Shown: one piece after another, positions 7,501-57,697 of the stretch
Layout of the letters: each line of letters begins with the position of its first letter
Numbering within the stretch: position 1 is the first letter of the stretch
Source: Liolophura sinensis
Lineage: Eukaryota; Mollusca; Polyplacophora; Chitonida; Chitonidae
Direction: 5' to 3'
Assembly (NCBI RefSeq): GCF_032854445.1
Contig: NC_088301.1
Location: forward strand, 31,914,402 to 31,978,401
DNA: 64,000 nucleotides
Position numbers and translations under genes: made by a program
Notes under the pieces: model-generated
The model's input: the letters and a program-made list of their open reading frames with translations, nothing else
Told to the model about the DNA's origin: nothing
Database searches by the model: none

Positions 7501-10500
7501 GCTGATAATGTTTTGTTTTAGTTTCGGCACAGTGGACCCAGAGAGCCCCAAGGACGAGGACCACCCCTCATACGTGGCAGAAACCGTGTTCAGAGACCTG
7601 ATTTGTCGAGCCTCATATGGAAACATCAAACCTCTACTCAAGCCTATCCTCATGTAAGTACTAAACAGACACTCAACTATCATCAATTAACTGAGAGTAA
7701 AAAACATTACCCCAACTCCTCCACCTTTTGCATATGAAAGAGCAACTTTCAGTGCAGTTTATGCACATTTTTAGTTGTTTAGTACGGCGTAAAACACCAA
7801 TCAAATAAATAAATAAATAAAATACTATAAATTTGGTACAAGGCCTAAAAGTTTGGTCATGACTAAATGGTCCACATTTTGTCTGATTCTTAAGAATTCT
7901 ATTATTGCGGGAAAGGCGTTTGAGGTTTGTTTGGATGATATATTACATTGTCAAAAGTAATATATTAAAACATTTATATGCTTCCAAAAAATTTTGCAAG
8001 TGATAATTTAGGTCGTTTACCATATTTTCAGTAGTAAAATAAAAACTAATACAAAAACAAAGCCAATCATGCAAACGAATTAACCTACTAATGACAGGTC
8101 AGTTGTGAAGTACAGTGCTGTACTCGCTTGTACAGATCAGATCCTGTAAATCTCATCTTCGTCATGTAAGTAGCATTACATAGCTATTAATGTAGCCATG
8201 AAATCAGTTGGATTGTATCACTTGACCATCGCGCAATTATTGGATGCCAGAGAGCAGAATTTTTTTTCATATGGTACGGTAGGCTAAAAGCATAATATAG
8301 AGGGGTGCTGCAGTGTTTATCGTTTGCTCTCCACGTTTATCTAAACATTCATGAGAAAATTTTGACAGATGAACAAATTTCATTATGTGTTCATTTTAAA
8401 ATTTCCTCAAAATACTAAAGTGAAGATGAATAGGAAGGAATATTCAAGGGCTGGATATAGAGTTCCCAGACGAGAACAGGAAGATCAAAATACATCCTCC
8501 TGGCCAGCTGAATCTGTATGTGAGTCTACAATTGTTATTTATGCGGGAGGTGAAAGTCCTTGGACCGTCCTAGGTGAAAGTCCTTGGACAGTCCTTGAGC
8601 TATATCATAAAGAGGTCATTATGAAGTGTTTGTACATTATGGGGTAGTATTGTACTCATCGTGTGGTGTTGGAAATCTGCATTGGATTAATACGGATTTT
8701 CAACACACATGGACCATTAGAATACCACTCCATCATGTACAAAATCTTTCGCAATAACCTAATAATCTTGCAACATAAATCACAAGATAATGCATTTATA
8801 TGGTCATTTAATCATTTCGTATATTTTATTTGCAGGCACTTCGATAATCATAGCCTCTGGGTTCCCAACAATTTTGCTGTTAAAATCTTCACCATCATAA
8901 TGTTCTCTGTACAGGTAGGTATGAAGGTGGCCACCTTTCCACAAAGTAATTTTGGACTTAAATGTTTTAAAGTTCAGGATAATGTGTACAGTATTGTTCA
9001 GTAAGCTGAAATCGTGATAGTTTTGCCTTGATTTAGCATTTGCTAGGCTTACCCGTTTTAACTCCACAATTAACCGTTGGATTTGGGAACACTTCGTTAA
9101 TCAAATTTAGAGCAACTTTTTCCATATATGACATTGCTTTAGTTAATGCACCATAAGGCGACATCATGTACGAGAAGAGTTATGAAAAACTGATTTACAA
9201 AGTTTTGTGAAAGTGGGCCCAAAATTAAAATTTTGATTAAAAGTCAAAATCAGCTGTGTGGAATTGGCTGCTTGTACTCCTGATCTGTGTTATATCCATC
9301 ACATGTCAGTTATGTAATAGCTCCATTTAAATGTTGAACATTTCATAGCACATACAGGTACATTAATATACAACGGATAGTACAAGCCTCGGAAACTTTG
9401 TGGCCTGGTGGTTAGCTTGTTAGAGTAACATAATTACCCAGAAGCCTCTAACCATGACCACCATGAGCCTTCCAGCAGTCTGTGGATGTTTCTGGGTTTT
9501 TCGAGCCCAGTTTTGTCACACCATAATGCTGGATGGGGTCACATAAGTGAAATATTCTTGAGTACGGCTTAAAACTCCAATCAGATAAATAAACAATCCT
9601 TTTGAGGTTTTATTCCCTTTTTAATGGTGAAAATAGTTTTTGATATAGTTTGGTTGATAAAAGATGCGTAAAGTAGCTAACAATGACTCAACAATGAGCT
9701 TCAACATTGTTTTAGAGTTTCATTTTCTTTTAATTATGTACAGGTATTGTGTTTTTTCTTCAGCCCCAGTATGGTCACTTGGTGATACAAAGTATCATGT
9801 CCCACCTGGATACCCATGCCAAAAGTGACTCCAATATCAAGATCAGCATTGTGGAGGTGTTGTATGAGACAGTGCTGATAGCTGCTGGTGGATCAGTGGG
9901 TGAGTATTAGACACTCCTGTATCAAGATCAGTATTGTGGAGGTGTTGTATGAAACAGTGCTGATAGCTGCTGGTGGATCAGTGGGTGAGTATTAGACGCT
10001 CCTGTATCAAGATCAGTATTGTGGAGGTGTTGTATGAGACAGTGCTGATAGCTGCTGGTGGATCGGTGGGTGAGTATTAGACACTCCTGTATCAAGATCA
10101 GTATTGTGGAGGTGTTGTATGAAACAGTGCTGATAGCTGCTGGTGGATCAGTGGGTGAGTATTAGACAGTCCTGTATCAAGATCAGTATTGTGGAGGTGT
10201 TGTATGAAACAGTGCTGATAGATGCTGGTGGATCAGTGGGTGAGTATTAGACACTCCTGTATCAAGATCAGTATTGTGGAGGTGTTGTATGAAACAGTGC
10301 TGATAGATGCTGGTGGATCGGTGGGTGAGTATTAGACACTCCAGTATCAAGATCAGTATTGTGGAGGTGTTGTATGAAACAGTGCTGACAGCTGCTGGTG
10401 GATCAGTGGGTGAGTATTAGACAGTCCTGTATCAAGATCAGTATTGTGGAGGTGTTGTATGAAACAGTGCTGACAGCTGCTGGTGGATCAGTGGGTGAGT

Positions 10501-13500
10501 ATTAGACAGTTCTGTATCAAGATCAGTATTGTGGAGGTGTTGTATGAAACAGTGCTGATAGCTGCTGGTGGATCAGTGGGTGAGTATTAGACACTCCTGT
10601 ATCAAGATCAGTATTGTGGAGGTGTTGTATGAAACAGTGCTGATAGATGCTGGTGGATCGGTGGGTGAGTATTAGACACTCCAGTATCAAGATCAGTATT
10701 GTGGAGGTGTTGTATGAAACAGTGCTGACAGCTGCTGGTGGATCAGTGGGTGAGTATTAGACACTCCTGTATCAAGATCAGTATTGTGGAGGTGTTGTAT
10801 GAAACAGTGCTGACAGCTGCTGGTGGATCAGTGGGTGAGTATTAGACACTCCAGTATCAAGATCAGTATTGTGGAGGTGTTGTATGAGACAGTGCTGATA
10901 GCTGCTGGTGGATCAGTGGGTGAGTATTAGACACTCCAGTATCAAGATCAGTATTGTGGAGGTGTTGTATGAAACAGTGCTGATAGCTGCTGGTGGATCA
11001 GTGGGTGAGTATTAGACACTCCAGTATCAAGATCAGTATTGTGAAGGTGTTGTATGAAACAGTGCTGACAGCTGCTGGTGGATCAGTGGGTGAGTATTAG
11101 ACACTCCAGTATCAAGATCAGTATTGTGGAGGTGTTGTATGAGACAGTGCTGACAGCTGCTGGTGGATCAGTGGGTGAGTATTAGACGCTCCTGTATCAA
11201 GATCAGTATTGTGGAGGTGTTGTATGAGACAGTGCTGACAGCTGCTGGTGGATCAGTGGGTGAGTATTAGACACTCCAGTATCAAGATCAGTATTGTGGA
11301 GGTGTTGTATGAAACAGTGCTGATAGCTGCTGGTGGATCAGTGGGTGAGTATTAGACGCTCCTGTATCAAGATCAGTATTGTGGAGGTGTTGTATGAGAC
11401 AGTGCTGATAGATGCTGGTGGATCAGTGGGTGAGTATTAGACACTCCAGTATCAAGATCAGTATTGTGGAGGTGTTGTATGAAACAGTGCTGACAGCTGC
11501 TGGTGGATCAGTGGGTGAGTATTAGACACTCCTGTATCAAGATCAGTATTGTGGAGGTGTTGTATGAAACAGTGCTGACAGTTGTTGGTGGATCAGTGGG
11601 TGAGTATTAGACACTCCTGTATCAAGATCAGTATTGTGGAGGTGTTGTATGAAACAGTGCTGACAGCTGCTGGTGGATCAGTGGGTGAGTATTAGACACT
11701 CCAGTATCAAGATCAGTATTGTGGAGGTGTTGTATGAAACAGTGCTGATAGCTGCTGGTGGATCAGTGGGTGAGTATTAGACGCTCCTGTATCAAGATCA
11801 GTATTGTGGAGGTGTTGTATGAGACAGTGCTGATAGCTGCTGGTGGATCAGTGGGTGAGTATTAGACACTCCTGTATCAAGATCAGTATTGTGGAGGTGT
11901 TGTATGAGACAGTGCTGACAGCTGCTGGTGGATCAGTGGGTGAGTATTAGACACTCCTGTATCAAGATCAGTATTGTGGAGGTGTTGTATGAGACAGTGC
12001 TGATAGCTGCTGGTGGATCAGTGGGTGAGTATTAGACACTCCAGTATCAAGATCAGTATTGTGGAGGTGTTGTATGAGACAGTGCTGATAGCTGCTGGTG
12101 GATCAGTGGGTGAGTATTAGACACTCCTGTATCAAGATCAGTATTGTGGAGGTGTTGTATGAGACAGTGCTGACAGCTGCTGGTGGATCAGTGGGTGAGT
12201 ATTAGACACTCCTGTATCAAGATCAGTATTGTGGAGGTGTTGTATGAAACAGTGCTGACAGCTGCTGGTGGATCAGTGGGTGAGTATTAGACACTCCAGT
12301 ATCAAGATCAGTATTGTGGAGGTGTTGTATGAAACAGTGCTGACAGCTGCTGGTGGATCAGTGGGTGAGTATTAGACATTCCTGTATCAAGATCAGTATT
12401 GTGGAGGTGTTGTATGAAACAGTGCTGATAGCTGCTGGTGGATCAGTGGGTGAGTATTAGACACTCCAGTATCAAGATCAGTATTGTGGAGGTGTTGTAT
12501 GAGACAGTGCTGATAGATGCTGGTGGATCAGTGGGTGAGTATTAGACACTCCAGTATCAAGATCAGTATTGTGGAGGTGTTGTATGAAACAGTGCTGACA
12601 GCTGCTGGTGGATCAGTGGGTGAGTATTAGACACTCCTGTATCAAGATCAGTATTGTGGAGGTGTTGTATGAAACAGTGCTGACAGTTGTTGGTGGATCA
12701 GTGGGTGAGTATTAGACACTCCTGTATCAAGATCAGTATTGTGGAGGTGTTGTATGAAACAGTGCTGACAGCTGCTGGTGGATCAGTGGGTGAGTATTAG
12801 ACACTCCAGTATCAAGATCAGTATTGTGGAGGTGTTGTATGAAACAGTGCTGATAGCTGCTGGTGGATCAGTGGGTGAGTATTAGACACTCCTGTATCAA
12901 GATCAGTATTGTGGAGGTGTTGTATGAGACAGTGCTGATAGCTGCTGGTGGATCAGTGGGTGAGTATTAGACACTCCAGTATCAAGATCAGTATTGTGGA
13001 GGTGTTGTATGAGACAGTGCTGATAGCTGCTGGTGGATCAGTGGGTGAGTATTAGACACTCCTGTATCAAGATCAGTATTGTGGAGGTGTTGTATGAGAC
13101 AGTGCTGACAGCTGCTGGTGGATCAGTGGGTGAGTATTAGACACTCCTGTATCAAGATCAGTATTGTGGAGGTGTTGTATGAAACAGTGCTGACAGCTGC
13201 TGGTGGATCAGTGGGTGAGTATTAGACACTCCAGTATCAAGATCAGTATTGTGGAGGTGTTGTATGAAACAGTGCTGACAGCTGCTGGTGGATCAGTGGG
13301 TGAGTATTAGACATTCCTGTATCAAGATCAGTATTGTGGAGGTGTTGTATGAAACAGTGCTGATAGCTGCTGGTGGATCAGTGGGTGAGTATTAGACACT
13401 CCAGTATCAAGATCAGTATTGTGGAGGTGTTGTATGAAACAGTGCTGATAGCTGCTGGTGGATCAGTGGGTGAGTATTAGACACTCCTGTATCCATCTCA

Positions 13501-16500
13501 TGGTTGTGGATACTTTGCATGAGACTGTGCTTATGATATCAAAAAGAAAACAGTGGACTTGCTCTGTTGCTACTTTAAATTGCTGAATATGTACATCAAT
13601 AGCAAAGCTAGAAATCCTCCAGTTGTTTACTTTATTTTACTTTACACGTAAATAGATTTTCAGAGGCACACAAAGGGAGGTAACTGCAGGAGAATAAATG
13701 CACATGATCTTTGGATATAAGCACAAGATCATTGGCTACTTTACTTTACACGCAAATAGATGTCAGAGAGGCGCACAAAGGGAGCATAAGCACAAGAGCA
13801 TTGGCTATGTCATTGTGAATGTGGTATATTACTTGGTGAGTGATGTTGCTTTGCTTGACTGCGTTATCGTTGTTCACATATTTTGCAGAATGTCGTGTGG
13901 CCGTTTATTGAATATGCAAAATATGCAAGAATGACTCTATGAGGTGTAATAATAATAGTAATAATAATAATAATAAATGTTGACATTTATGACAGGTCCA
14001 TCTGTGCTGGAGGTGTTCAACACTCTGTTACGTCACCTGCGGATCTCCGTGGACAGTCCCGGATCAGACAATAGCCCCACAGAGCGGCGTTTCCAGGAGT
14101 CTGTCATTAACACTATTGGTCAGTTTGCTGAAACCGTCAAACCCTTTATCATTATGTTTTTACTTCACGTTAGCCTGAAACCAATTTTGGCCATATAGTA
14201 ATTACTATAGCCATGTGTATCCATCACCTAAACATTTTGAGAACAATTTTATGTCTCATTATTAAATTTGGTGAAACTGTTTATTTTCTCTCTCGTAGAA
14301 AACTTATAGAAAATGAGTGTTGTCTGATAATATTATACTGGTTCTGCTAGGTTTCCTCCCACCATTGTATAAGTGTGATATTCTGGAATAATACGCCAAT
14401 CAAGTAAATAAATGATGATATAACTCGAAAACTGCTTATTGTAACAGAAATATTGCCTTGCATTTCATAGAACGAATCTCTGCTTTCAGGTGAATTTGCC
14501 AACAACTTGCCAGACTATCAGAAGATTGAAATTATGATGTTTGTGATGAGTAAGATGCCTCAGTCAACAGAGGAAGACATGGAGGGGTAAGACCTTGTAG
14601 CAGTGAACCATGCATGTGGGGTAGTGGTTATCTGCCCATGGCTCCTAGGTGGCCGGTGTCACATAGAAAATAGCGCTAAAATTAAATCAACCCTATTGCC
14701 TTCAATGAGTCTGGTATGCTATAAACACTTAGAAATCATGTAATTTTTTAAAATATTTGAATCTCACAGTTATGTATATGATTGATTGTCATTCTGCAGC
14801 ATACTAAACCAAAGGTTTTTTTTAATTTGTGGCCAACCAGTCGAAACAAATTTATCTCAATAATTTTAAGGGCATAAAAGTTTCTACCACCAAAAGTATG
14901 GTTAATTGTATACGTGTTTGACATATTCCTTATGATACAGGGGCCAGATGGATGTCCAACTGCAGACAACATTACTCAAGACACTACTTAAGGTGGGTAC
15001 TACATATAGTTTTTTTATTCTTATAGCCACACCACTCTGTGTACCCTACAATACTGTATAGCCTCGCCATGCTGTGTATCCCTACTATACTGTATAGCTT
15101 CACCATGCAGTGTAATCTCCACCAATGTACTATATAGCCTCACCATGCTGTGTATCTCCACTATACTGTATAGCATCATCATGCAGTGTATCCCCACTAT
15201 ATGTATAGCCTCACCATGCTGTGTATCCTAACTGTTCTGTGTAACCTCATTATGTTGTGTATCCTCCCTATAGTGTGTACCTCAACTACATATGTGCTGT
15301 GTATCCTCACTATACTGTGTAGCCTAATTGTACTGTGTATCCTCACTACATGTGTGCTGTGTAACTTGACTATGCTGCGTAGCCTCACTATACGGTGTAA
15401 CATAACAATGCTGTGTAGCTTCACTACATGTATGCTGTGTATTCTCACTACATGTGTACTGTGTATCCTCACTACATATGTGCTGTGTATTCTCACTACA
15501 TGTGTGCTATGTATCCTCACTACTTGCGTGCTGTGTATCCTCACTATGCTGTGCAGCGTAACTATGCTGTATATCCTCACTACCTATATGCTGTGTATCC
15601 GCACTATACTGTGTAGCCTAATTGTGCTGTGTATCCTCGCTATACTATGTAGCCTAACTGTGCTGTGCATCCTCACTACACGTATGCTGTGGATATCTTT
15701 TCTACAGGTTTTTTGATCATTCCATTGCTGAAAGTGCAAATGAATTTGCAATTTGTGGTATTTTGTGTTGTAGGTTGCCACCAAGTACAAAACTGTGCTG
15801 ATGTCTAATGCCTTTCCTTCGGAGCTTCTGCGCCCCTTGTTGAGGATGTCCCTGGCCAGTGATCCCGGAATGAGACTCATTGTCCAGGACATCCTCCACA
15901 CGCTAATTGACCGACACAACAACACAGCCAAGCTCACCACTGTCCGGTAATAGTTTATAGCTATTTATGTCATGCCCAAGATTATGTATAGTTTTTAGTT
16001 CCCTGTCGGCACTGGAGAGCACTTCAGGTTTACGCCATGTCATGGACAGCTCCCATGTGCTTGTGTTATCTGGGTTGTTTGGACACCTTATGTCTTAAAC
16101 AGAACACAGTAATGCATGTACATTTTTCAGTGGACGATATATTTAGCACATTACTTCATAATGTTTGAATGTTGCCCTGAAACTTCACAACGTTACTTCT
16201 TTAGTATCGTAACATGAAAACAAAATAAGGCCTTAAAGTACTGATCTTTTTATTTGTTTGTTTGTGATTTTGTCTTGTTTCAGCATTCCCAAAGATATAT
16301 CTCAGCTTGGTTTGACAGTGGACAAGTGTTCCAGACAGGATATCATGTTCATGAAACGGGTAAGTCAAGCAACATCCTAACTCACCAAGCCAAACTTATT
16401 TACCCTATATAACCTGAAAATTCGACCACAAAAAAGCATTTTGGGAGGCAAATAAATGTCATAGGATATTACTTCTGGTGCCAAAATTTACATTTTCCAA

Positions 16501-19500: not shown

Positions 19501-22500
19501 CAGATCAGAAAAGCAGATTTCCTTGGACATAGCTAGAACTGTTAGATTCAATTGATCTGTCAAGGGTGTAACCCTCCATAATGTATATTTCAGGTTATTG
19601 AAACTCGTCAAGAGGAGGCTACTCACCTGTTGCCTGAGTTTGCCTTCAAAGAGTTTGATATCACAGACAGGTAAGTTTCACCAGTAGTCAATTCCACATG
19701 CCAAACAGTTACATTACATTTTTTCCACCAAACTGTGTTGCACGGTTTCCTCCCACCATCAAGCTGGCCACAGTCATGTAAGTGAAATACTTTTAGATGT
19801 GTGCTAGGGCAGCACAAGGATTTGGGAGCCTCTCACGAATGTGATCACTGTGAGTTAAAGTCCAGCTCATGTTGGCTGCCTCTCAGGTTGTTCATGTGAA
19901 GGTCTTGCCAGTAACCTGTGGATGGTCATGAGTTTTCCTTGGGCATCTCAGCTTCCACCCACCATCATGCTGATCGTCATCACAGATATACAAGTGAAAT
20001 ATTTTTAAGTATGATGTCTAGCACCAATCAGATAAATAAATAAAATGAATAAATGAATGAATAAATAAATCTTGGATGCTGAACAGTGCTAGTATTGTAA
20101 TTTATAACAACACCATTTGAAACAATATGTTGACTCCCTATTACATTTTACAGTGTTTCTGTTTGTGTTTCTCATTTGGCATAGTTAATGATGTATTTTA
20201 ATGATGTACTATAAACACAGTATCCTATCTTTTTTTGTTTATTTGGAATATTGATTTATGATTTTTGATGGTCCAGGCAACAGCCATTACGGTGTCAGTT
20301 GATCAAGCATCGGTTGTTTAAAGCTGTATAATGTAATGCAATAACACGGATTTAATAACCTTGCCCATCTGTACAATATCCATGTACCTATGTTTTCCCA
20401 ACAGCATGGAGTACCCCTCCCTGGATAACCTCGACCCATCCTACCTGTTTGAACAGTCTGCTATCTCTGAAGCTCTGGACAGCTCAGGATACGACATTTC
20501 CAAACTCAACACGCCGTTTTCAGAGAAAGTGGACTTTATGGGTGAGTGACGTCTGTTCCCCAGACAGTCTCAGACCAGAAATTTTGAATATCAAGCTGAC
20601 ATTTAAAATTGATCACTATATTAAAGTATTGTATGTATATATATCTAGGTAATAATAAGGCAAATAGCTGCAGTATGAAAATAAGGCAAATAGCTACATT
20701 ATGAAAATAAGACAAATAGCTGCAGTATGAAAATAAGGCAAATAGCTGCAGCGTAAGACAAAGGCAAATAGTTGCAGTATGAAAATAAGGCAAATAGCTG
20801 CAGTATGAAAATAAGGCAAATACCTGCAGTATGAAAATAAGGCAAATAGCTGCAGTATGAAACTGGCAATTCTTCAGTTGTTTACCTTTGTTATGAGGTG
20901 TAAATTTGTTTGTTATATCATCTTGTAATACATGCGATTGTGAGAGGGTATCTTCAGTTTTTTATCTCCTGTATAAGCATTGCCAATATCATACCAGTGA
21001 AAGCAGGTTTAAGGTAAATGCTACAAGCAGTACCCTTAATATTTGCATACATGTAAACCACAAAATAAAAATAAGGCGGATGCTCGATGGTTGATGTCCT
21101 ACCTGCATATAGTTATTAGTTACCATAAATTACATCACCGCTTAACCTCTTGTGTATTGGAATCAGGGTTAAGGTAATGTTAGCTGTGGTGTCTCTTAAA
21201 GCACTGCATGTGAGAAGCTCAAGATTTGCATAGTGTGAAACACAGTAACACAAGAGGATGTGCCACTGTTGATGTCTGTTTTCAAGTATGAATTATTGTA
21301 AATTACGCAATTCATTGAGGAATATTACGGCCTGTTTGAATCAAGCACCTATCAGCTTCCTTCAGAAGTTTCTTAGGCACATGTATTTGGTGAGAGCAAC
21401 GTTGTTTCCATTACCCTCAGCATGATGTACCAAATAACTGTGTATGGAACTATAATAGAATACTAATGATCCGTAGGCGTATCTTGTATTATAATCTGGA
21501 CTTTTGTACATTTCATCAAAAATAAGGCTAGATTTATTTTCATTGGTGTTAACTATTTCAGAAAATACAGTTGAGAACCAAAGGCATGCATTGGGGCTTC
21601 TGAAGCCCAACAGTTGTATGTTTGTGTTTGCTATATGATGCTTTATTACAGGGCTGGGTAGAGGCATACATAGGAGCACCAGTGACATCCACTCCATCTC
21701 TCTAGAAATAGACAGTGTGGATGCCTCTCCTACAATGGGACGGGTGAGACACACAGCAGCATGGGGGTGTTATGGTTGATCTATGTGGTGCTGGGAAGTT
21801 GAGTGGGGGTGGAGGGACAGGTTGCTGAGACAGACTGTATGACTTGTCACCTTTTCCATTCATCAGGCTTGTCAAGTAACTCAAAGCACAGGTGTTGCCT
21901 TCCAGCCTTTGGTTATTTGGAAACAATAGCAGATCATTATTATTTCAAGACATAGTGACCTAAAATAATGTTCACAATTGTTATACGTCTGGGTTTAGCA
22001 TTTGTTTGCATGAAATTTCTTAACAAATTCTTCACACATCAATATACAAAAGGCATAATTGTCTGCAGATGGTTGTTGCCAGGATCTGCTCTCAGTTACC
22101 ACCCCTCCCCCTTCCCTCGACATTGTCCAGAGGAGACAGTTATGTAGGGAGATTGTGCTGTGAACCTGTGACACTGGCCTCTGTGTGTTGACTGTTAGAG
22201 TCTAGATTAATGTGGTAGTGGGCATGGTGTATTCTTCAAACTTTTCACCTCTCAGGCTTCCTTTTTGAGCAGGATTTATGTTCCCAGCAATCTGATTGGC
22301 TTTCAAAATGGTTTGTTTGGCGTATAAATTCCACAACTTATATATAAAAATATTTCCTTCTAAATTAGGAATCATATAATAATGAAAAAAAATAAAATTC
22401 AGATCAGAAAATAAAATTTTCACTCTCTTGAATACCTCATTGTTCTAACAGCGTAATAATGACATGCTCCATTGAGTTTCATGTGCAAATGTAATATCAC

Positions 22501-25500
22501 TGGTCATGTTGGCATTGTAACAGAAGACTCTCATAAGCTTTGACTGGTAATGTATATAAGCTTCACTCATATACAGTGAATCTGATAAACTCTGTCACTG
22601 AAAGCTTGTCTTGTAAATATTATTTCCAAAATTAGTCTCTAATTTGCTGCCATCATTGTTTTGTTTTTGTTTTTTTGTTGTTTTGTTTTTTTTGCTCTAA
22701 GTAAGAGCATTAGAGAGGACATTGCGCAGCACTGATATGGGGAAAAGGTTGAGGAATGGCTGTTACTATTTTCTTGTCAACAAGCACTCTCCAGTATAGC
22801 TTGCTACTGTAGAACTACTAAATGGACTTTTTGTTGACTGTGCATGAATCTCTTGCTGTCTTTCTACCTGTCAGCAGATATAGACATCACATTCCCACAA
22901 TTGGAGAGGAGTTCATCAACTTCTTCATGTTCTTCCCTTGAGTCCTTGTTTACCATGGAGGTATTTGGCCGTATGTTTGTGTCTGTTAACATGAAGGCTA
23001 TACTAACAACCTGGCCAAACTCCTCCACTGGTCCCAATATACCATCCTTTCTCACCCCAGATATCGTGTATCCTTAACCACATTGGCAGGGGACATACCC
23101 TAATTTTCATGTATTGAACTTCTAAAGTGGATATTTTAAGAATAGTTTATGTAGTGAAATATTTGTATTATGGAAGAGCACAAAGAACAATTATTTGTGG
23201 ATAAAATTTAAAAATTGTGGTGGATCTCTCATATACTATTACTGTAATTGCTTATATGCGCATCTTATGTCTGCTGATGTCTAAATCTTGAAATATTTTG
23301 AAAATTCTTGAGAATTTCGGAAAATGATGCCCTGTATTTAAAGAACCATAAAACTATCTGCTCCTAACTAAATTACCTGTATCAAACAACCATAAAACTG
23401 TCTGCTCCTAACTAAATTACCCGTACGTAACAACTATAATACTGTCTGCTCCTAACTAACTTACCTGTATCAAACAACCATAAAACTGTCTGCTCATAAC
23501 TAAATTACCTGTATCTAACAACCATTAAACTACCTGCTCCTAACTAAATTACCTGTATCTAACAACCATAAAACTACCTGCTCCTAACTAAATTACCTGT
23601 ATCTAACAACCATAAAACTGTCTGCTCCTAACTAAATTACCTGTATCTAACAATTATAATACTGTCTGCTCCTAACTAAATTACCCATACATAACAACTA
23701 TAATACTGTCTGCTCCTAAATAAATTACCCGTATCTAACAACTATAATACTGTCTGCTCCTAACTAAATTACCCGTACATAACAACTATAATACTGTCTG
23801 CTCCTAACTAAATTACCCGTACGTAACAACTATAATACCATCTGCTCCTAACTAAATTACCCGTACGTAACAACTATAATACCATCTGCTCCTAACTAAA
23901 TTACCTGTATTTAACAACCATAAAACTACCTGCTCCTAACTAAATTACCCGTATCTAACAACTATAATACTGTCTGCTCATAACTAAATTACCTGTACGT
24001 AACAACTGTAATACTGTCTGCTCCTAACTAAATTACCTGTATCTAACAACCATAAAACTACCTGCTCCTAACTAAATTACCCGTACGTAACAACTATAAT
24101 ACTGTCTGCTCATAACTAAATTACCTGTATCTAACAACCATTAAACTACCTGCTCCTAACTAAATTACCTGTATCTAACAACCATAAAACTACCTGCTCC
24201 TAACTAAATTGCCCGTACATAACAACTATAATGCTGTCTGCTCCTAACTAAATTACCTGTATTTAACAACCATAAAACTGTCTGCTCATAACTAAATTAC
24301 CCGTACATAACAACTATAATACTGTCTGCTCCTAACTAAATCACCCGTACATAACAACCATAAAACTGTCTGCTCCTAACTAAATTACCCGTACATAACA
24401 ACCATAAAACTGTCTGCTCTTAACTAAATTACCCTTACATAACAACTATAATACTGTCTGCTCCTAACTAAATTACCTGTATCTAACAACTATAATACTG
24501 TCTGCTCCTAACTAAATTACCCTTACATAACAACTATAATACTGTCTGCTCCTAACTAAATTACCCGTACATAACAACCATAAAACTGTCTGCTCCTAAC
24601 TAAATTACCCTTACATAACAACTATAAAACTGTCTGCTCCTAACTAAATTACCCGTACGTAACAACTATAATACTGTCTGCTCCTAACTAAATTACCCGT
24701 ACATAACAACCATAAAACTGTCTGCTCCTAACTAAATTACCCGTACATAACAACCATAAAACTGTCTGCTCCTAACTAAATTACCCGTACATAACAACCA
24801 TAAAACTGTCTGCTCCTAACTAAATTACCCGTACGTAACAACTATAATACTGTCTGCTCCTAACTAAATCACCCGTACATAACAACCATAAAACTGTCTG
24901 CTCCTAACTAAATTACCTGTATTTAACAACCATAAAACTGTCTGCTCCTAACTAAATTACCCGTACGTAACAACTATAATACCATCTGCTCCTAACTAAA
25001 TTACCTGTATTTAACAACCATAAAACTACCTGCTCCTAACTAAATTACCCGTATCTAACAACTATAATACTGTCTGCTCATAACTAAATTACCTGTACGT
25101 AACAACTGTAATACTGTCTGCTCCTAACTAAATTACCTGTATCTAACAACCATAAAACTACCTGCTCCTAACTAAATTACCTGTATCTAACAACCATAAA
25201 ACTACCTGCTCCTAACTAAATTGCCCGTACATAACAACTATAATGCTGTCTGCTCCTAACTAAATTACCTGTATTTAACAACCATAAAACTGTCTGCTCC
25301 TAACTAAATTACCCGTACATAACAACTATAATACTGTCTGCTCCTAACTAAATTACCCGTATGTAACAACCATAAAACTGTCTGCTCCTAACTAAATTAC
25401 CTGTATCTAACAACCATAAAACTACCTGCTCCTAACTAAATTACCCGTACGTAACAACTATAATACTGTCTGCTCATAACTAAATTACCTGTATCTAACA

Positions 25501-27556
25501 ACCATTAAACTACCTGCTCCTAACTAAATTACCCGTACATAACAACTATAATACTGTCTGCTCCTAACTAAATCACCCGTACATAACAACCATAAAACTG
25601 TCTGCTCCTAACTAAATTACCCGTACATAACAACCATAAAACTGTCTGCTCTTAACTAAATTACCCTTACATAACAACTATAATACTGTCTGCTCCTAAC
25701 TAAATTACCTGTATCTAACAACTATAATACTGTCTGCTCCTAACTAAATTACCCTTACATAACAACTATAATACTGTCTGCTCCTAACTAAATTACCCGT
25801 ACATAACAACCATAAAACTGTCTGCTCCTAACTAAATTACCCTTACATAACAACTATAAAACTGTCTGCTCCTAACTAAATTACCCGTACGTAACAACTA
25901 TAATACTGTCTGCTCCTAACTAAATTACCCGTACATAACAACCATAAAACTGTCTGCTCCTAACTAAATTACCCGTACATAACAACCATAAAACTGTCTG
26001 CTCCTAACTAAATTACCCGTACGTAACAACTATAATACTGTCTGCTCCTAACTAAATCACCCGTACATAACAACCATAAAACTGTCTGCTCCTAACTAAA
26101 TTACCCGTATTTAACAACCATAAAACTGTCTGCTCATAACTAAATTACCCGTACATAACAACTATAATACTGTCTGCTCCTAACTAAATTACCCTTACAT
26201 AACAACTATAATACTGTCTGCTCCTAACTAAATTACCCGTACGTAACAACTATAATACTGTCTGCTCCTAACTAAATTACCTGTATTTAACAACCATAAA
26301 ACTACCTGCTCATAACTAAATTACCTGTATCTAACAACCATAAAACTGTCTGCTCCTAACTAAATTACCTGTATCTAACAACTATAATACTGTCTGCTCC
26401 TAACTAAATTACCCGTACATAACAACTATAATACTGTCTGCTCCTAACTAAATTACCCGTATCTAACAACTATAATACTGTCTGCTCCTAACTAAATTAC
26501 CTGTATTTAAAGAACCATAAAACTGTCTGCTCCTAACTAAATTACCTGTATTTAATAACCATCAAAATCCCTGCTCATAACTAAATTACCCAAGTCTAGC
26601 TACATTAAGACTACCTGAGCTTAATTAACTTACCTTTATCTAACAACCTTAAAAGTTAAGTTCTCATTACTAGGTTTCCAGTATCTACCATTCATAGAGC
26701 TGCCAGCTCATAACGACACGTAAATAACAGGGATTTGACAACCATAAAAATGCCTGCTCATAACTAATATGTAACAGGTATCTAACAAAATTTTAAGAAA
26801 TGTTCATTACTGAAAAACTTGTATCTAACAACCATAAAATACCCTGCCTCTGAATAAATAACCTGCACATAGCCATCACAAATGCCCTGTGCTAATGTAA
26901 TCATTTGGCTGTAACTATTTCATCAATTATTTTGACAATTTTTCCTTGTGTTGCATGCTGTCCTTGTCTTTATCACTTTGTCTTTCGTTTTTTGTGTGTT
27001 AGATTAATAGATTAATGGGAACTACAGCTCCCAGGTGATACATGTAAGCCAAACCCAAAGAGATTTATGTATCCAAGCTTTTTGTACACAAGGGAACACA
27101 TGTTGGAACTGGTTTGATTATACATTGTCGGCAAAATATGACTGATTGTCACTTGCTCTCAGGAAGACCATATTGTCATTATAGATTCTTTATTAAAATG
27201 ATTTGTCCTCACTTTGGTCATATCTTATTCCTGATTCAGCAATACTAATAATGGTTACTTAAATGTTTACAAAAATGCAGAAGGTCCTGGCTTTTATACT
27301 GCTGGACATCGCATACACTTGACCAATGAGATCAAGAATGAATTTCACCCTTGCACAAGTTGATTTGTTGTGTCTTTATTTGAGGTGATATGTCAGGCAC
27401 TTGGCCATATGTGGGAAAGATCTGTTAGCAACCTGTGTTTGGTGGTTGGTTTCCCCTGCGCTCTGCCAGCTTTCCTCCCACCCGAATGTTGACCACTGTC
27501 CTAGAAGTGAGATATTCTTGAATATGGCGTAAAACATCAAACAAATAAATAAGTAA

Positions 27557-27609
<53 letters not shown>

Positions 27610-29750
27610 GTATCTTTATATCTACATCTCTTTTCCTTTGTACAACACACTGATTAGTATTTTACAAATCATATTTCAGAGACAGACATTATCAGATGAA
27701 ATCACCTTTGATTCCTTGAAGAAAATGCTAGGTAAGCTGTTCATATGTAATTAAGACATTAGACTACTCAAAGATAAGCTAAACCATGCTGTTGCCCAAG
27801 GGATGTATATATTCTGTTCAACCCTGTGTGCCTGGAGTGGTTTTTCTTTGTGATATTTAGTAAGTATTAATAAATGATAAGAAACATGTAAATTTAATAC
27901 AAGAATGTTGTGACATAAATGTGCATGTAGTGTTGTGGCTCTTGCAGTAAATCATAGTAAAAGTGGCTCTCTTAGCCGTTACTGGCTTCTAGCAAAAGTT
28001 ACCACAACTAGCATTGACCAGTCGTGTCAACAAGATGACAAGTTTAAATCCTGATGGCACAGGTTAGGGCCTGCCTTTAAAGTTATACAGAATCAATGCT
28101 AATTGGCTGACATTTATCATACCCAGCTTAGGGTATTCAGCTTAGGCTGGACAAAAATCTATGCTCACTCACAGTCAGTCAGAAACGATTCTGTACCCCT
28201 TTAGTTTAAATCATTGTCTGGTGCATGTAACTGCCTGGTATCCCAGTGGAAAATTCCTGAGTACAGCATTGCAAACAGTCAAATGAATAAATAAATAAAT
28301 CTGGTGTGATGTGTGATGGTGGGAGGAAGTCAGGTCTCTGATGGGATTGTTCCATCTTCCAGCGGAGGACTCGCATGATCACAAGGAGGAGGCTCGCAAG
28401 AGGATGGAGATTCTAAATGTGTTCAAGAAGGCTCCGTTTGAAGAGATTGTGGCACGTTCAGAGGCTAAGGTAGGCAGGACTTTGTATAACCATCTTAATG
28501 GCTCAATCAAGAGTCGAGGCATGCCAGTCACATTAAAATTGGCAGTCTTGGTATATGTGTGGCTTAACAGTTTTCCAATATTTTGTGTATGCTTTCCTGT
28601 CGACTTGTTGTGGGAAGTTCTGTCAGCCATGTGGATGGTCATGGCTTCCCCCTAGGCTCTGCCTGGTTTCCTTCCACCATAATTCTGGCTGCAGTCGTAT
28701 AAGTGAAATATTCGTGAGCATGGCATAAAACCTCAGCCAAATAAACATATAAATAATATAATAAATAGGACACATGAGGTGTGGTTTCAAACCCCGCCTT
28801 GGCAAGACTATTTATTGATTCCCTGCTCTTGCTGTTTGTGGGGCCTCGGTGCCAATAAGTGGTTGAAGACTCTCTTGTGGCTTTGTGCACAGAGTAGTGT
28901 TCAATGAAGACCAGCTGTCTTGAGCACTTTTCTCCACCCTTAAAAAATCCACGTTAACTGACTGTTACTGGCATGACCAAATGTCTACTGAAATAGGATA
29001 TCCTAGCTCTCTCCAGTTGGGTCACACACATACATAAGACATAAAGTTGCCAGTTTTCTGGACCTTGTGTTCAACTTAGAGAAATACATGTAGGCCAAGT
29101 AAATTTATTAGTTAAATAAGATTTTAGTTAAATAAGAATCAAAACTGATAATAAGTTGATAATGACATGCATGTAAAGGGCCATTCAAAGTTTTTAGTTA
29201 TTTGTGACAGTTCAGATTGATACTTTCAAATATTTAAAGTGTGTCAGGTGTCTGTATCAAAAGGGTACATATTCCAATTTTGCTGTCCATAATCATTAGT
29301 TATGTTGCACCTGTATATATCTATGCTTTGTGAGTTCTGTAAGGTTTGTCTGAAGTATAAATCAAAGAGTTATTGGGCTACACCTCATCTCTCTGTCCAT
29401 CAAAACTCGGTTATGCAGCCTTTTTTTTTCATAATGTGTCAACATATTGCACTCATTTGTGTATTTTCAACAAAATTGTGGTCTTTTTGTCCTCTTTTTC
29501 ACAATGGTTGGTTATTCTGAATTGAATTCTGATACATGGCTTCAACGAGACGAGTCACTGTGTAAATCACTATTTTGTAACCGTTTGTTATTTGTTTCAT
29601 TTTCAGTCCAATTTGTTCCACAACAAGCTCAACGAAATCCTGGATAACATTTCGACAGGCACGGATTCTCCAGATTCTGGTATTCGTGTGAACGGCAGAG
29701 ATCCAGTGCCAGTGTTTCAGATGCAGTTCCCAGACCTGTTTGTGTATTGA
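4549..29750 (+). CDS. EFR3: EFR3 homologue (protein EFR3 / rolling blackout family), last 17 coding exons; 5' end outside window
   Basis: EFR3 proteins are palmitoylated plasma-membrane scaffolds that recruit the PI4KIIIalpha-TTC7-FAM126 complex to make PI4P. Exons: 4549-4686, 7522-7653, 8836-8914, 9764-9899, 13996-14118, 14490-14586, 14941-14992, 15774-15946, 16284-16359, 17170-17331, 18418-18546, 19594-19670, 20405-20541, 21652-21743, 27680-27731, 28363-28469, 29607-29750. All have AG/GT borders and compatible phases, giving 634 residues plus stop. Recognised family blocks in order: GLQGVVRKTVSDD and MDKIVPSLL (exon 1 here), LWVPNNFAVKIFTIIMFS, GPSVLEVFNTLLRHLRISV, NLPDYQKIEIMMFVM, IDRHNNTAKL, HAMVAAYLNLISQ, EITFDSLKKML, KKAPFEEIVARSEAK and C-terminal PDLFVY. 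The first base, 4549, finishes a codon begun in an unseen exon. Vertebrate EFR3 is about 820 residues, so roughly 150-190 N-terminal residues, including the palmitoylated cysteines, lie upstream. The introns are loaded with tandem repeats and transposons. Exon joins are inferred from phase and homology, not transcripts. Confidence 0.93.
6167..7309 (+). mobile_element. Tc1-type DNA transposon, internally deleted, flanked by TA
   Basis: Perfect 28-bp terminal inverted repeats lie at 6167-6194 and 7282-7309; each outer end reads CAGTCCTGGAAAAAAG going inward. TA dinucleotides at 6165-6166 and 7310-7311 form the target duplication expected for Tc1/mariner elements. The 1143-bp element holds the catalytic half of a transposase but no recognisable DNA-binding half. 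It has a frameshift, so it cannot encode its own mobility. Confidence 0.93.
6333..6978 (+). pseudogene. Tc1-like DD34E transposase remnant (5'-deleted, frameshifted)
   Basis: The open stretch begins after a stop at 6330-6332 and reads into WARERLNW, then IFSDESRF (first catalytic Asp) and YQDDNATPHR (second Asp). An extra T in the run near 6716-6720 shifts frame. The following frame carries SPDMNPIENLW (catalytic Glu) and ends at TAA 6976-6978. Allowing for the shift, 34 residues separate the second Asp from the Glu, the Tc1 signature. The N-terminal helix-turn-helix region, normally over 100 residues, is absent: only about 140 bp separate the 5' inverted repeat from the remnant. Confidence 0.92.
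7765..7822 (+). repeat. SINE 3' tail fragment
   Basis: AGTACGGCGTAAAACACC followed by AATCAAATAAATAAATAAAT is the 3' end of the first SINE family without head or body. Confidence 0.8.
9095..9221 (+). repeat. Half copy of a foldback element
   Basis: CACCATAAGGCGACATCATG through GAAAGTGGGCCC matches the right half of the palindromic element at 50015-50157 (CCATAAGGCGACGTCG ... GTGAAAGTGGCTCC). Confidence 0.6.
9398..9597 (+). mobile_element. tRNA-derived SINE, shortened copy in EFR3 intron
   Basis: Head-like GGCCTGGTGGTTAGCTTG, GAAGCCTCTAACCATGACC, a shortened body with CTGTGGATG, CACACCATAATGCTGG and AAGTGAAATATTCTTGAG, and the tail ACTCCAATCAGATAAATAAA. Part of the middle has been lost. Confidence 0.75.
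9764..9899 (+). CDS. EFR3: EFR3 coding exon whose 3' end seeds the 85-bp array
   Basis: The exon reads in phase 0 from the AG at 9762-9763 and ends one base into a glycine codon before GTGAGT at 9900. It encodes a helical-repeat stretch ending in LYETVLIAAGGSV, continued by GPSVLEVFN in the exon at 13996. Its last 64 bases (9836-9899) plus 21 intron bases form unit 1 of the 85-bp tandem array. The exonic unit carries a C at 9847 (AGATCAGC) where the downstream units have T. Reading through the donor gives an in-frame TAG within four codons (GGT GAG TAT TAG), so only the first donor preserves the protein. Confidence 0.9.
9836..13490 (+). repeat. 85-bp tandem array, exactly 43 copies, made of exon 3' end + splice donor
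   Basis: The unit starts ATCAAGATCAG and contains the end of the EFR3 exon, the donor GTGAGTATTAG and a short linker ending CTCCTGT or CTCCAGT. Starts step by 85 (9836, 9921, 10006 and so on to 13406) and the array stops at 13490, where ATCCATCTC replaces the next ATCAAGATC. Copies differ at a handful of sites: GAG/GAA ACA, GATA/GACA, GCT/GAT, TCA/TCG and the linker. Each copy keeps a donor-like GTGAGT. The array fills most of a 4.1-kb intron. Confidence 0.97.
14345..14412 (+). repeat. SINE 3' fragment in EFR3 intron
   Basis: GGTTTCCTCCCACCATTG, then GATATTCTGGAATAATACG and CCAATCAAGTAAATAAATG represent the last quarter of the first SINE family. Confidence 0.7.
15030..15705 (+). repeat. Degenerate short tandem repeat in EFR3 intron
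   Basis: Imperfect units of roughly 18-27 bp built on CTGTGTATCCTCACTA and CATGTGTG fill the stretch. The regular sequence leaves long open frames on both strands (up to 176 codons) that are repeat artefacts, not genes. Confidence 0.85.
16732..16953 (+). repeat. 33-bp tandem repeat, about 7 copies
   Basis: The unit TGTAATTCATAAGTATTAGC plus CAGCTCAGAGGAC repeats with small changes (AATAGCCAGCTTA, ATTGGCCAGCTCA, TGCTAGCCAGCTC). It is intronic in EFR3. Confidence 0.9.
17511..17633. repeat. Inverted repeat, about 40-bp arms, in EFR3 intron
   Basis: The left arm, about 17511-17553 (CGTTGCCATTCCTTGTGCAA ... TTGGGCCTGAT), pairs with the right arm, about 17591-17633 (ATCAGGCCCAGTTGGAAGCT ... GGGGATGGCAGCG). 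A few mismatches and a loop of about 37 bp remain. The transcript of either strand could form a long hairpin. It may be a small foldback element. Confidence 0.75.
18608..18775 (-). mobile_element. SINE, 5'-truncated, inverted
   Basis: TTTATTTATTTATTTGATTG, ACAAGAATATTTCACTTATA, GCGGCCAGCATTATGG and CACGACCATCTGCAGG are the minus-strand tail and body. The copy ends at GGAGAGGAAGCC without a tRNA head. It begins 62 bp after the exon ending at 18546. Confidence 0.8.
19738..20072 (+). mobile_element. Two SINE copies head to tail (first partial)
   Basis: A 3' fragment (CGGTTTCCTCCCACCATC ... GTAAGTGAAATACTTTTAG, about 19743-19800) is followed by a longer copy. The longer copy runs from the lost head through GGGAGCCTCTCACGAATGTG, GCCAGTAACCTGTGGATGG and CAATCAGATAAATAAATAAA to about 20072. 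Confidence 0.75.
20651..20865 (+). repeat. 26-bp tandem repeat, about 8 copies
   Basis: The unit AAAATAAGGCAAATAGCTGC plus AGTATG repeats between EFR3 exons 20405-20541 and 21652-21743. One unit is shortened near 20751-20765. Confidence 0.9.
23331..26590 (+). repeat. 44-bp satellite, about 74 copies
   Basis: The unit CTCCTAACTAAATTACCCGT then ACATAACAACTATAATACTG and TCTG repeats at 44-bp steps. Two main variants alternate: ACCATAAAAC versus ACTATAATAC, combined with CCTGTATCTA versus CCCGTACATA. Diverged units continue to about 26860. There is no coding potential, and it lies wholly within an EFR3 intron. Confidence 0.96.
27395..27555 (+). mobile_element. SINE, 5'-truncated, + orientation
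   Basis: TATGTGGGAAAGATCTG, GGTTTCCCCTGCGCTCTGCC, TTTCCTCCCACCCGAATG, GAGATATTCTTGAATATGGC and an AAATAAATAAG tail are family body and tail without the tRNA head. A TA microsatellite follows. Confidence 0.75.
27557..27604. repeat. TA dinucleotide microsatellite
   Basis: Nearly pure (TA)n with one G interruption follows a SINE tail and precedes the EFR3 exon at 27680 by about 75 bp. Confidence 0.95.
28245..28303 (+). repeat. SINE tail fragment
   Basis: TTCCTGAGTACAGCATTGC, then GTCAAATGAATAAATAAATA, is a diverged 3' end of the first SINE family, 60 bp before the EFR3 exon at 28363. Confidence 0.6.
28620..28768 (+). mobile_element. SINE 3' half in EFR3 intron
   Basis: GTGGATGGTCATGGCTTCCC, CTGCCTGGTTTCCTTCCACC, GTCGTATAAGTGAAATATTC and GGCATAAAACCTCAGCC with an A/T-rich tail match the body and 3' end of the first family. 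Confidence 0.8.
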
Positions 29751-48599: not shown

Positions 48600-49560
48600 A
48601 CATTTGTGTTTAGTCACATCACTACAGATCTGTGTAAAGAGGACATCATGTCCACTAGTTTGTGTCTCGTTCTTAGGATACAAACTGATGTCCTTTGTCT
48701 TCACCAGAACTGTGTCCTTATTTGGATGATCAAGCTACCAGATTTGTGACCACTGTTTGCTCATTTGTATCTTGTTTCTACGACTGATATTTATTAGACA
48801 TCTAATCTTTACCAGAACTGTGTCCAATTTGGATGATCAGTTGTCTGCATATTTGTATCTCGTCAGTACGACTGATATTTAATAGGCAGCTAGTCTTCAC
48901 CAGAACTGTGTCCAATTTGGATGATCAGTTGTCTGCATATTTGTATCTCATCCGTACGACTGATATTTATTAGACATCTAATCTTTACCAGAATTGTGTC
49001 CAATTTGGATGATCAGTTGTCTACATATTTGTATCTCATCCAAATGACTGATATTTAATAGACATCTAGTCTTCACCAGAATTGTGTCCAGTTTGGATGA
49101 TCAGTTGTCTACATATTTGTATCTCATCCGTACGACTGATATTTATTAGACATCTAATCTTTACCAGAATTGTGTCCAATTTGGATGATCAGTTGTCTAC
49201 ATATTTGTATCTCATCCGAATGACTGATATTTAATAGACATCTAGTCTTCACCAGAATTGTGTCCAGTTTGGATGATCATTTGTCTACATATTTGTATCT
49301 CATCCATACAACTGATATTTAATAGACATCTAGTCTTCACCAGAATTGTGTCCAGTTAGGATGATCAGTTGTCTACATATTTGTATCTCATCCGTACAAC
49401 TGATATTTAATAGACATCTAGTCTTCACCAGAATCGTGTCCAAGTTAGACAATCAGGCTACCAGGTTTGTGACCAGCAGCCATCGTCTGTCCAACACATT
49501 TCGTTTCCAAACATCACGTGTCCACAAAATTTGTGTCTAGTTTGGACGACCAGTTCACTA
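48600..49560 (+). repeat. 88-bp tandem repeat between the convergent genes
   Basis: The unit contains TTGTCTACATATTTGTATCT, CGACTGATATTTAATAGAC, TAGTCTTCACCAGAATTGTG and CCAATTTGGATGATCAG. Six to seven good copies lie between about 48770 and 49450, with decayed units on both sides. Confidence 0.9.
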
Positions 49561-56856: not shown

Positions 56857-56968
56857 ATAATTGGATTAACACTGAATGACCTTTTAATTATAAACCAGAA
56901 GCTTCTCATTTAATACTTACTTAGTTTCACAAAGTGCATATCACAGTGTATAAAATGAACGTCTACCT

Positions 56969-57697
56969 ACCAACATTAACTCTGTAACCTCAGCTGTGTG
57001 CTAGGTAGCATCAAAATTTGCTACTAATTTGTCTCCTAATATTTTAACAAATCACCTGTTCACTGTTTGGATACCAACATTAACTCTGTAACCACAGCTG
57101 TGTGCTAGGTAGCATCAAAATTTGTTACTAATTTGTCTCTTAATATTTTAACAAATCACCTGTTCACTGTTTGGATACTAACATTAACTCTGTAACCACA
57201 GCTGTGTGCTAGGTAGCATCAAAATTTGTTACTAATTTGTCTCCTAATATTTTAACACATCACCTGTTCACTGTTTGGATACCAACATTAACTCTGTAAC
57301 CACAGCTGTGTGCTAGGTAGCATCAAAATTTGTTACTAATTTGTCCCCTAATATTTTAACAAATCATCTGTTCACTATTTGGATACCAACATTAACTCTG
57401 TAACCACAGCTGTGTGCTAGGTAGCATCAAAATTTGTTACTAATTTGTCTCCTAATATTTTAACACATCACCTGTTCACTGTTTGGATACCAACATTAAC
57501 TCTGTAACCACAGCTGTGTGCTAGGTAGCATCAAAATTTGTTACTAATTTGTCTCCTAATATTTTAACAAATCATCTGTTCACTGTTTGGATACCAACAT
57601 TAACTCTGTAACCACAGCTGTGTGCGAGATAGCATCAAAATTTGCTACTTATTTGTCTCCTAATATTTTAACAAATCACCTGTTAACTGTTTGGATT
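56969..57697 (+). repeat. 104-bp tandem repeat, 7 copies, upstream of UBE2U exon 1
   Basis: The unit ACCAACATTAACTCTGTAAC, CACAGCTGTGTGCTAGGTAG, CATCAAAATTTGTTACTAAT, TTGTCTCCTAATATTTTAAC, AAATCACCTGTTCACTG, TTTGGAT repeats at exact 104-bp steps. The array starts 113 bp before the UBE2U start codon (transcript sense), so it sits in the likely promoter. Confidence 0.95.

What the first reader, a model, noticed from the sequence alone, without database searches (positions are those of the whole stretch)
9836..13490. A coding exon's 3' end and splice donor amplified into 43 tandem copies inside the following intron
Seen directly: 43 units of exactly 85 bp, the first of which is the last 64 coding bases of an EFR3 exon plus its GTGAGT donor. 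The intron therefore carries 42 extra donor-like sites embedded in exon-identical sequence. Reading past donor 1 hits TAG within four codons, so use of any later donor would give a truncated message. How the spliceosome picks donor 1 is the open question. Decoy-donor competition, regulated nonsense-mediated decay or intron-length polymorphism are possible; these are inference.
Basis: partly seen in the sequence, partly recalled or inferred. Interest (0 to 1): 0.8.

Follow-up and report, generated by a model that had tools for sequence, protein, structure and literature searches.

The report
Splice-donor mirage minisatellite in chiton EFR3
In a chiton, the end of one exon of the gene EFR3, with its splice signal, sits 43 times in tandem at the start of the next intron; it is a large example of a repeat type known from lancelets, and the same genome holds others like it, which makes them natural tests of how cells choose the right splice site.

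Summary
In detail: 43 head-to-tail units of exactly 85 bp at 9836-13490. Unit 1 is the last 64 coding bases of an EFR3 exon plus its donor; the 17 bp around the donor are identical in 43 of 43, and every match found in the genome lies at this locus. New: a decayed, in-register 44th unit (31 of 44 bases), repeated multi-unit blocks, and changed peptides in 25 of 42 intronic copies, while copy 1 differs from consensus only synonymously. The assembly matches the chiton Liolophura (published as L. japonica, corrected to L. sinensis). The array is not unique: Pfam-supported arrays sit on exon 3' ends with donors (prominin, DNA-PKcs, GH31, an EGF exon; 4 of 23 examined) and on exon 5' ends with acceptors (DEP, YjeF_N, CCDC97-like; 3 of 25). 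The kind is known from lancelets as "mirages", reported not to disturb splicing. Best reading: minisatellite growth that ran across an exon edge and is tolerated because donor 1 is chosen by position. In GH31, 13 of 18 later donors score higher than donor 1 and the frame stays open for 92 codons, so neither donor strength nor stop-sensing explains that choice. No RNA was examined.

The parts
9764..9899 (+). EFR3 exon (136 nt), translation PQYGHLVIQSIMSHLDTHAKSDSNIKISIVEVLYETVLIAAGGSV + G of a split codon
   Evidence: acceptor TTTTTTCTTCAG before it
9828..9899 (+). part of the exon probably taken into the founding duplication (72 nt); unit 1 proper starts at 9836
   Evidence: TRF start 9828; backward comparison; inference
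9900..9905 (+). donor 1 (GTGAGT), the donor that restores the conserved protein
9836..13490 (+). 43 x 85-bp array; units 2-43 (9921-13490) lie in the intron, each with an identical donor
13491..13534 (+). decayed 44th unit in exact register, donor lost
   Evidence: 31 of 44 identical to unit 1; sequence
9900..13995 (+). intron, 4,096 bp (526 bp without 42 units)
13996..14118 (+). next EFR3 exon, (G)PSVLEVFNTLLRHLRISVD...; 3' end approximate

Best explanation
A mirage-type minisatellite. A tandem duplication spanned the exon-intron junction (about 72 exon and 13 intron bases) and then grew by slippage or unequal exchange, partly in blocks of many units; the donor is carried along as a passenger in each unit. 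The mature mRNA uses donor 1, because it is the first donor after the real acceptor and gives a short exon (136 nt); later donors would give exons of 221 nt or more that contain TAG three codons after donor 1. The array is a tolerated passenger that makes the intron about eight times longer. Shown: anatomy, register, decayed end copy, peptide drift in the copies, similar arrays on other exons, and that joining at donor 1 restores the conserved protein without a gap in EFR3, GH31 and DNA-PKcs. Inferred: the way it grew, use of donor 1 in RNA, and choice by position.
For: Array and register. Copy 1 differs from consensus only at two synonymous sites, 25 of 42 later copies have a changed peptide. 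Junctions at donor 1 are gapless against recalled human sequences, with matching intron phase, in EFR3, GH31 and DNA-PKcs. Pfam-supported exons at the array edge: 4 of 23 donor arrays and 3 of 25 acceptor arrays (one of the three just below its Pfam cut-off); 4 of 40 isolated donor octamers have one, Fisher p 0.45. On C1, 23 donor-octamer arrays against 20 for the reversed octamer, 5.65 against 4.63 per 1,000 octamers. Later donors are equal or stronger than donor 1 in several arrays, so strength does not decide. Lancelet mirages are reported not to disturb splicing (PMC3087553, PMC3902484, passages).
Against: No RNA was examined. Genome-wide, donor-octamer array rows are twice those of the reversed octamer (1,088 against 535), which the C1 array counts do not show and which is unexplained. 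The comparisons have little power, and the 40 baseline sites come from the first 2.3 Mb of C1. All 43 donors are intact, which retention by selection would also give (though 74 of 85 columns do not vary at all). The block repeats are only moderately beyond chance (58 of 2,000 shuffles as good).
Confidence: 0.8

Rival explanations
1. Functional poison-donor ladder: the 42 extra donors compete with donor 1 and yield stop-containing EFR3 mRNAs for decay, perhaps under stress, so that copy number tunes output.
For: All 43 donors are identical and a stop follows donor 1. In human cells intronic donors behind an in-frame stop are widely activated by heat shock (PMC3510495, abstract).
Against: Lancelet mirages are reported not to give aberrant mRNA (PMC3902484, passage); similar arrays sit on unrelated genes; donor octamers enter arrays on C1 at about the control rate.
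Confidence: 0.08
2. Nonsense-linked suppression: later donors are ignored because an in-frame stop precedes them, not because of their position.
For: Stops follow donor 1 within 3 codons in EFR3 and within 1-22 codons in the other exon-end arrays examined except GH31.
Against: In the GH31 array the frame stays open for 92 codons, about seven units, past donor 1, while 13 of 18 later donors score higher than donor 1; joining at donor 1 still gives the conserved protein. Whether GH31 in fact ignores its later donors is not known.
Confidence: 0.06
3. U1 landing array: the row of donor sites recruits U1 snRNP to protect the long intron from early polyadenylation or to hold unspliced RNA in the nucleus (idea recalled from the literature, not looked up).
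For: 43 U1-matching sites in 3.7 kb.
Against: Without the array the intron would be 526 bp and need no such protection; recurrence on unrelated genes at about background rate.
Confidence: 0.03
4. Assembly artefact.
For: Tandem arrays are prone to it; coverage is 14x (PMC11068029, passages).
Against: Mean HiFi read length exceeds the array; 21 distinct unit types; other arrays of the same build.
Confidence: 0.03

Closest known systems
Lancelet 'mirages': Adh3, globins BflGb6 and BflGb9, TnC, and imperfect ones in PGBD5 (PMC3087553, PMC3902484; passages read)
   Same: Minisatellite-like tandem duplication across an exon-intron boundary; copies carry splice signals; both exon edges can be hit; homogenised interior with edge copies left out
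   Different: Mollusc, not lancelet; 43 units here and about 141-143 at the EGF exon against 3-6 units stated for BflGb6; no RNA evidence here
Human internal tandem repeats at exon-intron boundaries in segmental duplications (PMC2812944; passages read)
   Same: Minisatellite copy number at an exon-intron boundary
   Different: Those are short (about 4 units of 30 bp on average) and are tied to new introns or alternative transcripts; here the protein-restoring exon is unchanged
Latent donors behind in-frame stops, suppression of splicing (PMC3510495; abstract read)
   Same: Intronic consensus donors preceded by an in-frame stop
   Different: Here they are exact copies of the real donor with its exon context, and the GH31 array lacks the stop for about seven units
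Duplicated-donor reporter experiments (recalled; not found)
   Same: Several identical donors compete for one acceptor
   Different: A natural case with 43 donors, in a gene

Membership tests
Mirage minisatellite | Tandem repeat units span an exon-intron boundary | tested here: met
Mirage minisatellite | Copies carry splice signals | tested here: met
   43 of 43 donors intact
Mirage minisatellite | Interior units homogenised, edge copies left out | tested here: met
   unit 44 decayed; unit 1 has a private base at column 12, 42 of 42 others share T
Mirage minisatellite | Regular splicing undisturbed (RT-PCR in lancelets) | not testable with these tools
   no RNA; only the gapless protein at donor 1
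Mirage minisatellite | Length instability between haplotypes or cells | not testable with these tools
   one assembly, no reads
Mirage minisatellite | Both exon edges affected in the genome | tested here: met
   donor arrays and acceptor arrays with Pfam-supported exons
Latent donors under nonsense-linked suppression | In-frame stop between the real and the latent donor | tested here: met
   EFR3: met; at the GH31 array not met for about seven units
Latent donors under nonsense-linked suppression | Unused normally, activated by stress | not testable with these tools
   no RNA

The most novel reading that the evidence does not exclude
In this chiton, exon-edge arrays form a natural series of multi-donor genes in which the first donor after the acceptor is chosen whatever the donor strength, copy number or reading frame; and at some loci (EFR3 as a ladder of stop-containing forms, GH31 as an in-frame 13-residue ladder) leaky use of later donors makes a copy-number-dependent set of transcripts.
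Probability: 0.12. Interest if true: 0.8.

Novelty: new member of a known kind. Interest (0 to 1): 0.58.

Why it matters
How the spliceosome picks one donor among identical or stronger neighbours has mostly been asked with two-site constructs (recalled). Here are natural arrays of 6 to over 100 donors on conserved genes, of differing strength and with closed and open frames, in an animal with deposited RNA-seq and long reads. The finding also takes exon-edge minisatellites from lancelets to a mollusc and suggests that extra donors downstream of the real one are tolerated.

Tried and rejected
Genome-wide satellite: rejected. An EFR3 paralogue without the array: none among the 44 matches. Copies as cassette exons: 17 of 43 units end in AG; such exons would be 65 nt, shift the frame and, by eye, lack a pyrimidine tract. 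Unit 44 as a second coding exon: differences fall 5, 2, 6 on codon positions 1, 2, 3, no sign of constraint. nhmmer alone ranks unit 44 only at E 0.27; the in-register comparison carries it. Donors as favoured seeds: C1 array counts do not show it (23 against 20), row counts genome-wide do (1,088 against 535); left open. Acceptor octamer arrays are rarer per octamer than donor ones (1.1 against 5.65 per 1,000), but equal their own reversed octamer in rows per octamer (0.0053 each), so no depletion is claimed. Pfam gave one sub-threshold hit for the joined EFR3 pieces (Med17, E 0.013), taken as chance. L024 looked ARFGEF-like and L025 SELENOO-like from memory; no support in PDB (L024) or Pfam (L024, L025). 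Rfam: nothing in the window. Paper searches without a molluscan case: no paper held the terms; 15 of 73 listed; 8 listed, all on Theileria by title; 3 listed, lancelet papers and one spider genome. One search did not find the duplicated-donor experiments. The C. elegans minisatellite paper (PMC4039745, abstract) concerns motifs near alternative exons, not donor arrays.

Full report
The array. Window 9836-13490 holds 43 units of exactly 85 bp without an indel. Eleven of 85 columns vary (12, 19, 33, 44, 47, 50, 60, 78, 79, 81, 83); there are 21 unit types and a mean pairwise difference of 2.5 bases. Columns 61-77, with the donor, are one sequence in 43 of 43. With 74 of 85 columns unvarying, that is no sign of selection on the donor. 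Unit 1 is the end of exon 9764-9899. TRF starts the array at 9828, so the first duplication probably took 72 exon and 13 intron bases (inference).

The gene. Across the junction the chiton reads IAAGGSVG|PSVLEVFNTLLRHLRISVD and the recalled human IAAKGSIG|PTVLEVFNTLLKHLRLSVE. Pfam and PDB give no support for the name. The intron is 4,096 bp and would be 526 bp without 42 units.

History. Directly after unit 43, in exact register, lies a decayed unit: 31 of 44 bases match unit 1, next best of 120,354 placements 25; its donor is lost. Units 19-22 recur as 32-35 and 26-31 as 37-42, suggesting block duplication; 58 of 2,000 shuffles did as well. Copy 1 differs from the consensus by two synonymous changes; 25 of 42 later copies have a changed peptide. 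Copy 1 looks held by selection on the protein and the rest drift.

The organism. G000 has 632 contigs, 609,464,459 bases and a longest contig of 96,433,062. A published chiton assembly has 632 scaffolds, 609,495,693 bp and a longest scaffold of 96,433,062 (PMC11068029, passages), since renamed Liolophura sinensis (PMC12441733, whole text). The totals differ by about 31 kb, perhaps withheld stretches.

Other donor arrays. Three AGGTAAGT with 52-82 bases between them: 457 + 631 matches, reversed octamer 278 + 257. The output lists only the first rows. For the donor octamer they reach C1 93.4 Mb and form 23 arrays; for the reversed octamer C1 90.4 Mb and 20 arrays (grouped by eye). Single octamers number 26,582 and 29,090. 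So on C1 arrays take up a donor octamer about as often as a control octamer (5.65 against 4.63 per 1,000). The twofold excess of rows in the whole genome is unexplained.

Which sit on exons. I fetched 23 of 23. In 4 of 23 the first donor ends an exon with Pfam support: prominin 6.1e-9, DNA-PKcs 5.4e-16, GH31 3.5e-13, calcium-binding EGF 1.1e-8 (DNA-PKcs also in PDB). Eight more (L011, L012, L013, L023, L024, L025, L026, L030) have an exon-like frame by eye without Pfam support; L013 has a sub-threshold PDC10_C hit at 0.065. L012 and L026 are the weakest; for L026 one search found only 2 copies of the exon end. In 11 of 23 I saw no exon. Baseline: of 40 isolated AGGTAAGT from the first 2.3 Mb of C1, 32 gave frames of 20 residues or more, and 4 of 40 match Pfam at 0.01 or better (guanylate cyclase, C2H2 zinc finger, calpain, tetraspanin at 0.0067; families assigned to loci by eye). 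4 of 23 against 4 of 40: p 0.45, little power.

Acceptor arrays. TTTTGCAG triples: 88 + 108, reversed 56 + 62; singles 36,967 and 22,208. The listed rows cover C1 to C8:34.9 Mb, about 375 Mb, and form 25 arrays; 25 of 25 were fetched. In 3 of 25 an exon with Pfam support follows the last copy: DEP 1.8e-13, YjeF_N 3.5e-6, CCD97-like 7e-6 (just under its cut-off) (five frames scanned, chosen by eye). So both exon edges are affected, as stated for lancelets.

Choice of donor. In EFR3 the 43 donors are equal, so strength cannot decide. With a recalled weight matrix, later donors that beat donor 1 number 13 of 18 in GH31, 13 of 22 in L023, 10 of 17 in L030, 23 of 30 in L012, 3 of 7 in L024, 1 of 7 in L013, 3 of 140 in the EGF array, and none in prominin (0 of 17), DNA-PKcs (0 of 5), L011 (0 of 5) or L026 (0 of 1). 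Joining at donor 1 gives the conserved protein without a gap, with matching phase at the acceptor, in EFR3, GH31 (SIPG ILNFQLFGIPL) and DNA-PKcs (IPYR VVYEQF). Past donor 1 a stop comes within 1-22 codons in the other exon-end arrays, but in GH31 (period 39) only after 92 codons. So in GH31 a stop-sensing mechanism cannot single out donor 1 among about seven. The rule that fits these cases is position: the first donor after the real acceptor, giving a short exon. This is inference from sequence.

Known kind. Lancelet globin, Adh3, TnC and PGBD5 genes carry tandem repeats over exon-intron boundaries, called mirages; the papers say they do not disturb splicing and, for Adh3 and a globin, vary in copy number (PMC3087553 and PMC3902484, passages; the first Adh paper was not held). 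Human minisatellites at exon-intron boundaries are also described (PMC2812944, passages). The EFR3 array meets the structural features of a mirage; the two behavioural ones could not be tested. Added here: a mollusc, high copy numbers, a sample over one chromosome, and the GH31 case. My searches found no molluscan mirage, in an open-licence library only.

Noticed in passing
window 23344-26654: A second large array in the EFR3 gene: 75 units of 44 bp, 89% matches, lying between exon matches at 20418-20603 and 28383-28469 and overlapping neither.
   Followed up: no
window 48779-49443 and 56968-57696: Arrays of 88 bp x 7.6 and 104 bp x 7.0, downstream of the last EFR3 exon match.
   Followed up: no
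L021 with L105 (C1:26352200-26358500): GH31 gene: 19 x 39-bp donor array with frame open 92 codons; the next exon is present twice, 203 bp apart, each copy with its own acceptor: a possible mutually exclusive exon pair.
   Followed up: partly
L037 with L022 (C1:31595400-31601900): EGF-exon donor array of about 141-143 units of 32 bp over 4.6 kb; GT kept in 105 of 141 copies.
   Followed up: partly
C1:2078113-2083981 (end of it in L013): Long 54-bp array whose unit holds an acceptor-like TTTTTGCAGGTATG motif, upstream of the 61-bp donor array.
   Followed up: no
G000, whole genome: Donor-octamer array rows are twice those of the reversed octamer although array counts on C1 are alike; perhaps a few very long arrays elsewhere.
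   Followed up: no
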